A DNA stretch of 64,000 nucleotides from Paludisphaera borealis (GTDB lineage: Bacteria > Planctomycetota > Planctomycetia > Isosphaerales > Isosphaeraceae): assembly GCF_001956985.1 (NCBI RefSeq), contig NZ_CP019082.1:1426001-1490000 (forward strand), read 5' to 3'. Position 1 is the first letter of the stretch. Each line of letters begins with the position of its first letter. The notes beneath the pieces were generated by a model. The model did no database searches, was not told where the DNA came from, and was given only the letters and a program-made list of their open reading frames with translations. Made by a program: the position numbers and the translations under genes. Of this stretch, positions 9,421-39,523 are shown piece after piece.

Positions 9421-9867
9421 TCGAGCGTTCTCCGGTGTTATGGATCCATGTCGAAGAGCACGTCATCGGCGCGAGCCGCCTGGAGCCACGGCGAACTCCA
9501 ACGCTGTTCACTTCGCTGTGAATGCGGGAAGAGCCGGCGTGCCGCAGGAGGTCCTGTGACGGCGGAAGTGCTGAGGTCGCCCTCACGATCAGCGTGATCG
9601 ATCTAGCCCCACCTCCGTTGGAAATACGCATCCCTTGGACACGGGCAGGCCGGTTTCGCGTGCCTCCGCTCTTCCGTCTAGGCCCCCCTTTTTTTGAAAG
9701 TCAAGGCGAGGACTCTCGGAATTCACCTCCGGCTTGCCGTTTGGGTCGTAAGTTAAGGAGAGGGAGAGTCTGCGCGCCCTGGGCACTTCCTCTATCCGGG
9801 GGGGCGTCCGAGTGGGAGGGCGATTGGGGAAGAGAGCCGGGCCGGGATCGATGCGGAAAACGGGGCC

Positions 9868-10195
9868 GAACGAACCCAATTTTCGGAGGGGCGGGTTGGT
9901 GATCGAGGGAGGCCGCTCTGGTGGGTCTGGGGGAGCGGAATCGGGTCGCTTGAACGATCCCAATCGCCGGTTTCCCGGCCGAACGAAGCCAAATTGGAAA
10001 CTGCACACAAAAAGCTTATCAGTAAAGGCTTTACGTCTTGCGCACGACGGCCGTGGGAGCGACGAACGAACCCAATTCCGGCGTGGCGGCGGGGGGAGGG
10101 CGGGAGGCCGTTGCGACGGGGGTTCGGGGGCGTTGCGAGGGAGTCGAGAGGGGTCTGCGACGGGTGATTTCGGCGCGATCGAACCCAATCGTCCG
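9868..10195 (+). repeat. Dispersed multi-motif element, copy A
   Basis: Five related motifs on the plus strand: GAACGAACCCAATT at 9868, GAACGATCCCAATC at 9952, GAACGAAGCCAAATT at 9981, GAACGAACCCAATT at 10064 and GATCGAACCCAATC at 10177. Leaving out 9952, the start-to-start intervals are 113, 83 and 113 nt. A second copy (39036-39336, opposite strand) has the same order of motif variants at 92, 82 and 112 nt. The intervals are not multiples of three, which argues against a protein repeat. The sequence between motifs is mostly diverged. Confidence 0.75.
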
Positions 10196-21018: not shown

Positions 21019-21092
21019 GCCGGGGTAGCTCAGTTGGTTAGAGCGGCGGTCTCATAATCCGCAGGTCTCCGGTTCAAGTCCGGACCCCGGTA
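21019..21092 (+). tRNA. tRNA-Met (anticodon CAT)
   Basis: A full cloverleaf of 74 nt. Acceptor arms GCCGGGG and CCCCGGT pair (a G-U wobble at the end), with discriminator A. The D arm is GCTC...GAGC, the anticodon loop is CTCATAA and the T arm is TCCGG-TTCAAGT-CCGGA. The anticodon stem has a T-T mismatch next to the loop, common in elongator tRNA-Met. CCA is not encoded. A CAT anticodon could also belong to lysidine-modified tRNA-Ile2; it lacks initiator features (unpaired first base pair, three consecutive G-C pairs in the anticodon stem), so elongator Met is preferred. Confidence 0.92.
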
Positions 21093-23924: not shown

Positions 23925-23995
23925 CTACCCGGCCAGGATTCGAACCTGGAAAAACAGGACCAAAACCTGTTGTGATACCGTTTCACCACCGGGTA
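23925..23995 (-). tRNA. tRNA-Gln (anticodon TTG)
   Basis: A 71-nt cloverleaf on the minus strand. Acceptor arms TACCCGG and CCGGGTA pair fully, with discriminator G. The anticodon stem is ACAGG/CCTGT with loop TTTTGGT (anticodon TTG), and the T arm is CCAGG-TTCGAAT-CCTGG. It lies 42 nt after the rex stop on the same strand and could be read from rex or from its own promoter. CCA is not encoded. Confidence 0.95.
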
Positions 23996-38862: not shown

Positions 38863-39523
38863 TGGGCGGTTTTCCCCGGTTTGTCGATTCTGTCGATCGC
38901 GGCGATTTCCGGGCCTGCGACGGTCCAGCCGGACCGGCCCGTCAACAATCTTGCACGGGAGCCGACGACGAAGGCATCCAACGAACCAACCTAGCGAAGT
39001 TCGGCCCGCCGGACAATCCGCCTCCCGGATCGCCCGGATTGGGTTCGTTCGACCCCGAATCAAGGCCGTGGCGACGACCGGCGACCACCTCTTCACACCC
39101 CTCGATCAAGCTCGGCTCCCCCATCCTTGGACTCGGGTCGACGGGGGGAATTGGGTTCGTTCGGCGTCGGCCCGACGCTGGAAATCTGGATGTAAGTTGT
39201 GTGTCCATAGATTGTTGCGTTCGCAAGGTCGGTTGGCTTCGTTTGGACCAAAAATGGGTGAACGTACCGGCGTCGCCGGTGTCTACAAAGGGGATCAAGC
39301 GATCCCAGCAGCAGTAGGCCGAGATTGGGTTTGATCGCGCGTTTTTTCGAAGGGTCGGCTTGTCTCCTCGGTGCTGCCGGATTGCCAGAGAGCCGACCAG
39401 ACGATGCGGTACTCCTCCTTAATTTACTATGTGCGGGCGCCGGATTCGACCGAGATCGGAATGAACCGCATGCTCGGTCGACCGCCCGACTTGTCCCTAT
39501 CCTCGAAGTTGCGGGAGGTGCTG
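38863..39523. other. Gene-free divergent region carrying repeat copy B
   Basis: 661 bp between xdhC (minus) and the phosphotransferase gene (plus). Open frames here translate to low-complexity strings without family likeness. It contains the second copy of the dispersed multi-motif element, with a short AT-rich patch at 39415-39430. Confidence 0.55.
39036..39336 (-). repeat. Dispersed multi-motif element, copy B
   Basis: Read on the minus strand, motifs start at 39336 (GATCAAACCCAATC), 39244 (AAACGAAGCCAACC), 39162 (GAACGAACCCAATT) and 39050 (GAACGAACCCAATC). Intervals are 92, 82 and 112 nt. The order of variants, including the distinctive GAAGCCAA in second place, and the last two intervals match copy A to within 1 nt. 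The element lies in a divergent intergenic region, as does copy A. Confidence 0.75.

What the first reader, a model, noticed from the sequence alone, without database searches (positions are those of the whole stretch)
9868..10195. Dispersed multi-motif element with conserved spacing, copy A
Five variants of GAACGAACCCAATT occur in one orientation in a gene-free region. Intervals of 113, 83 and 113 nt recur, and the order of variants (standard, GAAGCCAA form, standard, GATCGAACC form) recurs in a second place 29 kb away. The intervals are not multiples of three and the motif frames differ, so this is not a coding repeat. It could be a small mobile or REP-like element, a structured RNA or a regulatory array. 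Translated, it gives 'NEPN'/'TKPN' peptides, so spurious ORFs over it may be annotated as genes.
Basis: seen in the sequence. Interest (0 to 1): 0.7.

Follow-up and report, generated by a model that had tools for sequence, protein, structure and literature searches.

The report
Genome-wide phased DNA-binding-site arrays
The odd repeats are one of about a hundred evenly spread, non-coding DNA elements in a soil bacterium's chromosome, each a row of short identical sites placed on one face of the double helix around a symmetrical core. They look like docking platforms for an unknown protein and occur, patchily, in at least three bacterial phyla.

Summary
The window matches the Paludisphaera borealis PX4 chromosome in size. 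Its genome holds 28 exact CGAACGAACCCAATT motifs (0 in the reversed control) and about 94-103 array loci. Each array has 3-9 direct "arm" motifs. Arm spacings fall on a ladder of 45, 57, 68, 79, 90, 101, 112, 123 bp (period ~11.1 bp, close to the DNA helical repeat measured in living cells), plus one separate interval of 82 bp. That interval holds an AT-rich, dyad-symmetric, hypervariable 25-bp core. Full-length copies of ~430-510 bp sit at unrelated loci, so the element spreads. It encodes nothing, has no terminal inverted repeats, no RNA fold and no linked gene. All six Paludisphaera genomes carry it; 18 other planctomycetes score 0-2. Pattern matches also occur in Phycisphaerae, Verrucomicrobiota and Acidobacteriota MAGs. 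Arrays are spaced more evenly than chance. An IS110 element (17 near-identical copies) inserts into the arms.

Structured-RNA and coding readings are rejected. Best reading: a non-autonomous mobile DNA element whose working part is a helically phased protein-binding array around a recombination-like core, with the protein supplied from elsewhere. The protein was not found. A chromosome-organising role is the main rival.

The parts
9745..9800 (+). copy A, 5' box (GTCGTAAGTTAAGGAGAGG..TCTGCGCGCC..CACTTCCTCTATCCGGG), divergent version of the GTCGTAAACTTATAATGGAGGACTCT..CTCTTTGGCAATCCGGC box
   Evidence: box aligned across arrays (this copy: 6 of 17 positions of the second half differ)
9867..9881 (+). 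copy A, left arm, perfect consensus CGAACGAACCCAATT, preceded by GAAAA
9951..9965 (+). copy A, weak arm TGAACGATCCCAATC
   Evidence: falls 84 bp after the first arm
9980..9994 (+). copy A, first core arm, GAAGCC form, preceded by GGTTTCCCGGC
10009..10033 (+). copy A, dyad core, 9-7-9: AAAAAGCTT atcagta AAGGCTTTA
   Evidence: fixed ~31 bp before the next arm
10063..10077 (+). copy A, second core arm, perfect consensus
10176..10190 (+). copy A, right (last) arm, GATCGAACC form, 3' end of the element
   Evidence: homologous copies end about 7-20 nt after the last arm in most pairs
39376..39430 (-). copy B, 5' box (TAGTAAATTAAGGAGGAG...CTCTCTGGCAATCCGGC)
   Evidence: one mismatch to the box
39323..39337 (-). 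copy B, left arm CGATCAAACCCAATC
39231..39245 (-). copy B, first core arm CAAACGAAGCCAACC
39193..39217 (-). copy B, dyad core CAACAATCT atggaca CACAACTTA
39149..39163 (-). copy B, second core arm, perfect consensus
39037..39051 (-). copy B, right (last) arm CGAACGAACCCAATC

Best explanation
Each array is one copy of a dispersed, non-coding, non-autonomous mobile DNA element of about 430-510 bp in Paludisphaera (about 125 bp in the minimal Phycisphaerae form). Its working part is double-stranded DNA. A sequence-specific protein binds the 15-bp arms, which all point the same way and lie on one face of the helix. The bound arms gather the DNA around a short symmetric core, giving a nucleoprotein complex that works like a phage attP site or transposon end. 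A recombinase or transposase supplied in trans would act at the core and copy or move the element. Shown: the arms, their phasing, the core, the full-length copies at unrelated loci, the lack of genes, RNA fold and terminal inverted repeats. Inferred: the binding protein, its action at the core, and the enzyme class.
For: Arm copy number far above chance: 322 PWM hits against 8 in reversed sequence over 1.26 Mb. Spacing ladder of 11.0-11.15 bp, Rayleigh power 86.8 (null max 14.3), still 25 with one spacing per array; in-vivo helical repeats of 11.08 and 11.60 bp per turn are published (PMC1762422). In Phycisphaerae the arms overlap at exactly 10-11 bp. Core YAA N10 aAnAA N4 TTRYG shows dyad symmetry without covariation, so it is read as DNA. 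Four pairs of arrays at unrelated loci are homologous over essentially the whole element (71-78% identity) and diverge sharply outside; a fifth pair is partial. Arrays come and go between congeners (L007 and L022/L106 loci), and one lies on a plasmid. The core interior is only 51% identical in homologous pairs against 74% for other spacers (random pairs 45%; p=7e-5), as expected of a site that is cut or exchanged. Distribution is patchy across phyla. Few arrays lie closer than 15 kb, which target immunity would explain.
Against: No gene family is linked to the arrays. Tyrosine recombinases do not track them: PF00589 counts are 8, 20, 8, 19, 23, 18 in the six Paludisphaera genomes, and 3 in G240, which has only Xer-like genes and a fragment. 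No terminal inverted repeats or target duplications were found. Element ends were placed by similarity, not by a clean empty site. Even spacing and presence in all six congeners also fit a host function.
Confidence: 0.45

Rival explanations
1. Chromosome-organising arrays: a host DNA-bridging or wrapping protein binds the phased arms about every 75 kb and helps shape or segregate the chromosome. Copies were duplicated in the past but are now kept for this role.
For: Arrays are more evenly spaced than random (mean gap 73-80 kb, CV 0.62-0.68 against 0.95+-0.09, P<=1e-4). Orientation is random along the chromosome and neutral to genes. All six Paludisphaera genomes have 49-138 matches. The array upstream of mutL is present in three species.
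Against: 18 other planctomycete genomes have 0-2 matches, so it is not a general nucleoid function. Some arrays are gained or lost between congeners. One lies on a plasmid. A fast-changing core is unexpected for a stable organiser.
Confidence: 0.28
2. Transcription-regulatory or transcription-ending arrays acting on neighbouring genes.
For: Arrays are nearly all intergenic. The 5' box contains a TAWANT-like hexamer that could be a promoter (from the sequence only).
Against: Flanking gene orientation around arrays (19 divergent, 17 same-way, 10 convergent, 9 opposite) matches all intergenic gaps. No shared function of the neighbours.
Confidence: 0.1
3. Structured non-coding RNA with repeated motifs.
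For: Possible promoter in the 5' box; constant order of parts.
Against: Folding z-scores near zero on both strands, RNAalifold finds no pair in 40 aligned units, no covariation at the dyad, no Rfam hit at the arrays, and a single-turn spacing ladder that a folded RNA would not need.
Confidence: 0.03
4. The arms are only landing pads: sequences kept or spread because IS110-type elements recognise them.
For: 17 near-identical IS110 copies, nearly all inside an arm or arm-like sequence. The IS 5' region holds ATTGGCTTTG, complementary to the CAAAGCCAAT arm form.
Against: Most arrays carry no IS110. The phasing, core and 5' box are not explained by an 11-14 bp insertion target.
Confidence: 0.05

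Closest known systems
Phage attP-type sites (lambda Int: arm-type and core-type sites)
   Same: Strong directional arm sites on both sides of a weak, dyad-symmetric core of two 9-bp half-sites 7 bp apart (geometry compared from own knowledge of lambda)
   Different: About a hundred copies per genome, no integrase gene beside any, no tyrosine recombinase that tracks the arrays; core half-sites variable
REP / BIME with RAYT transposases
   Same: High-copy intergenic repeats; used as targets by an IS110-family element, as IS621 uses REP (PMC11208160)
   Different: No palindromes or hairpins. RAYT is absent from G002, which has 118 matches
MITEs
   Same: Short, non-coding, full-length copies at unrelated loci
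   Different: No terminal inverted repeats, no target duplication, no matching transposon found
matS / parS-type chromosome-organising sites
   Same: Dispersed protein-site-like motifs with regular distribution
   Different: Arrays of direct repeats with a core; mobile copies; absent from sister genera
CRISPR arrays
   Same: Short repeats with variable stretches between
   Different: 3-9 copies, variable phased spacing, core stretches match nothing else in the held sequence

Membership tests
Tyrosine-recombinase attachment site (attP) | arm-type plus core-type sites with an inverted-repeat core | tested here: met
   geometry only, not binding
Tyrosine-recombinase attachment site (attP) | linked or co-occurring integrase | tested here: not met
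Tyrosine-recombinase attachment site (attP) | strand exchange at the core | not testable with these tools
   needs biochemistry; core hypervariability is only suggestive
REP/BIME | 20-40 nt palindromic stem-loop | tested here: not met
REP/BIME | RAYT (Y1_Tnp) gene present and flanked by the repeats | tested here: not met
   G002 has 118 matches and no Y1_Tnp; the Y1_Tnp genes of six other array-bearing genomes (G001, G003, G004, G005, G176, G240) show no array beside them, though the three in P. borealis lie 0.6-3.2 kb from arms
MITE | terminal inverted repeats and target-site duplication | tested here: not met
   (10 elements, no consistent signal)
MITE | short non-coding copies at unrelated loci | tested here: met
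Structured RNA | conserved base-paired structure | tested here: not met
CRISPR | identical repeats, near-constant spacing, unique spacers matching foreign DNA | tested here: not met
   variable phased spacing; core stretches match nothing else in the held sequence
Chromosome-organising site (matS/parS type) | regular chromosomal distribution | tested here: met
Chromosome-organising site (matS/parS type) | bound by a structural chromosome protein | not testable with these tools
   no protein identified

The most novel reading that the evidence does not exclude
A so far undescribed class of DNA element: a selfish or domesticated helically phased arm array with a hypervariable dyad core, mobilised in trans by an unknown recombinase with spacing immunity, shared patchily by Planctomycetota, Verrucomicrobiota and Acidobacteriota, and doubling as an evenly spread chromosome-structuring site.
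Probability: 0.3. Interest if true: 0.88.

Novelty: new variant of a known kind. Interest (0 to 1): 0.7.

Why it matters
A repeat family with about 100 loci per genome, found in at least three phyla, appears to be undescribed; the P. borealis genome paper does not mention it and paper searches found nothing. The spacing ladder is a fossil record of in-cell DNA helical geometry, and would give direct evidence of how a planctomycete protein assembles on DNA. Either outcome is useful: a new mode of DNA mobility with a trans-acting enzyme, or a sequence-defined chromosome-organising system in a phylum whose nucleoid is poorly understood. It also explains spurious 'NEPN' ORFs and shows a new natural target for an IS110 element.

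Tried and rejected
Coding repeat: rejected (intergenic, frames differ; the clearest exception is L047, where 57-bp units lie inside a long ORF). Structured RNA: rejected. Core as a guide sequence: no matches elsewhere in the held sequence. Linked mobility gene: none among 142 + 98 neighbouring proteins except IS110 transposases sitting in arms. Tyrosine recombinase or RAYT tracking array number: no. Phage origin: no paired pattern in IMG/VR. My early idea that congeners G001, G004 and G005 lack arrays was wrong: their arms are only diverged, and model R1 finds 49-138 matches. Replichore polarity: orientation runs are random and GC skew of the pieces was too weak to place ori/ter. GAAAA/TTTTC long-range pairing between left and right arms: no matching changes seen by eye, none in folding.

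Full report
WHAT IS THERE. The window lies at 1,426,001-1,490,000 of a 7,497,544-bp chromosome. The chromosome and the 111,833-bp second contig match Paludisphaera borealis PX4 and its plasmid PALBO1 (PMC5352709). Five arm motifs occur at 9868-10190 on the + strand, and four more at 39037-39337 on the - strand. Copy A has intervals 113/83/113; copy B has 92/82/112.

MORE THAN CHANCE. The genome has 28 exact CGAACGAACCCAATT (0 reversed), 153 with at most one mismatch (0 reversed) and 661 with at most three (57 reversed). A PWM scan of 1.26 Mb gives 322 hits against 8 in reversed sequence, in clusters of 3-9 with one orientation.

SPACING. Spacings between neighbouring arms fall at 45, 57, 68, 79, 90, 101, 112, 123 and 134 bp, with a separate class at 82+-1. 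Without the 82 class the period is 11.0-11.15 bp, Rayleigh power 86.8 against at most 14.3 in 500 jittered sets, and about 25 when one spacing is taken per array. DNA looping in living E. coli gives 11.08 or 11.60 bp per turn (PMC1762422). In Phycisphaerae the arms overlap at 10-11 bp. The simplest reading is protein sites on one face of supercoiled DNA.

CORE. The 82-bp interval is AT-rich and holds YAA..T, seven bases, A..TTR, symmetric about one point. Its place is fixed relative to the following arm. Mirrored positions do not covary. The selection of aligned cores used the symmetric positions, so the ungapped 82-bp profile is the fairer view; it was filtered for AT content but not for these positions, and it shows AA and TT at 100%. 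The same core, YAA N10 aAnAA N4 TTRYG, recurs in Phycisphaerae units of ~90 bp.

ELEMENT AND COPIES. Many arrays share a 5' box, GTCGTAAACTTATAATGGAGGACTCT...CTCTTTGGCAATCCGGC. Pairs L044/L050, L002/L055, L025/L036 and L026/L033 are homologous over essentially the whole element and unlike outside it; L034/L052 is a partial pair. In Phycisphaerae MAGs many copies begin ~9 nt before the first arm and end with the last arm. There are no terminal inverted repeats or target duplications. Within the four main pairs the core interior is 51% identical, other spacers 74%, unrelated cores 45% (Fisher p=7e-5). The core is therefore exchanged or mutates fast.

NOT RNA, NOT CODING. Folding z-scores are near zero and no base pair is predicted; Rfam finds only two tRNAs in the window. 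Nearly all arrays are intergenic and orientation-neutral.

DISTRIBUTION. A sequence model of 40 core units finds 137, 49, 118, 123, 101 and 138 matches at E<=0.01 in the six Paludisphaera genomes (at most 150 candidates were scored per genome, so counts are lower bounds). It finds 0-2 in 18 other planctomycete genomes. IMG/VR had none. Arrays upstream of mutL exist in three species, while others are present in one and missing in another. In P. borealis the ~94-103 chromosomal loci are more evenly spaced than random (CV 0.62-0.68 against 0.95+-0.09, P<=1e-4; 2-4 gaps under 15 kb against 12.5-14.9 expected).

HOW IT MOST LIKELY WORKS. Shown: phased arms, symmetric variable core, duplicated copies, no gene of its own. 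Inferred: a protein binds the arms on one helix face and, with an enzyme supplied in trans, acts at the core. Against a classical integrase, PF00589 genes do not track the arrays and no family is linked to them. RAYT is also excluded as a general agent, since G002 (size-matched to strain SH-PL62 in PMC5352709) has 118 matches and none. Even spacing could mean target immunity or a chromosome-organising role; these data cannot separate them.

IS110. A 1476-bp IS110-family element (PF01548/PF02371) has 17 near-identical copies, nearly all inserted inside an arm or arm-like sequence. Its 5' non-coding part contains ATTGGCTTTG, complementary to an arm form, as expected of a bridge RNA guide. IS621 uses REP in the same way (PMC11208160).

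NOVELTY. No paper found mentions the motif or such arrays, and the P. borealis genome paper does not. The library holds open-access papers only.

Noticed in passing
L010:10013-11488 and L251-L267 (P. borealis): An IS110-family element with 17 near-identical copies inserts into the arm motif; its 5' non-coding region carries a likely bridge-RNA guide for the arm.
   Followed up: partly
chromosome-wide: Arrays are spaced more evenly than random along the chromosome; the 4.55-6.8 Mb stretch has 19 minus-strand and 6 plus-strand arrays.
   Followed up: partly
L047 minus strand 9643-9971: Arms lie inside a 3.9-kb ORF as 57-bp tandem repeats (a multiple of three) that give NEPN-type peptides.
   Followed up: no
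L038, L045, L046, L048 (5' of the arrays): Other intergenic repeats next to arrays: a palindromic GAAGCGCCAGCGAGTGAATT... family and a GGGCACCCACAAGGGGCGCCCCTACG family.
   Followed up: no
L284, L285, L286: All three Y1 (RAYT-like) transposase genes of P. borealis lie 0.6-3.2 kb from arm motifs, but this is not seen in the other array-bearing genomes checked.
   Followed up: yes
G003, 10-bp spaced hits; L139, L142, L146: In several genomes arms form simple tandem repeats (10, 84 or 90 bp units) without the AT-rich core, as if arms can multiply on their own.
   Followed up: no
window 21019-21092 (+) and 23925-23995 (-): Two tRNA genes, the only Rfam hits in the window.
   Followed up: no
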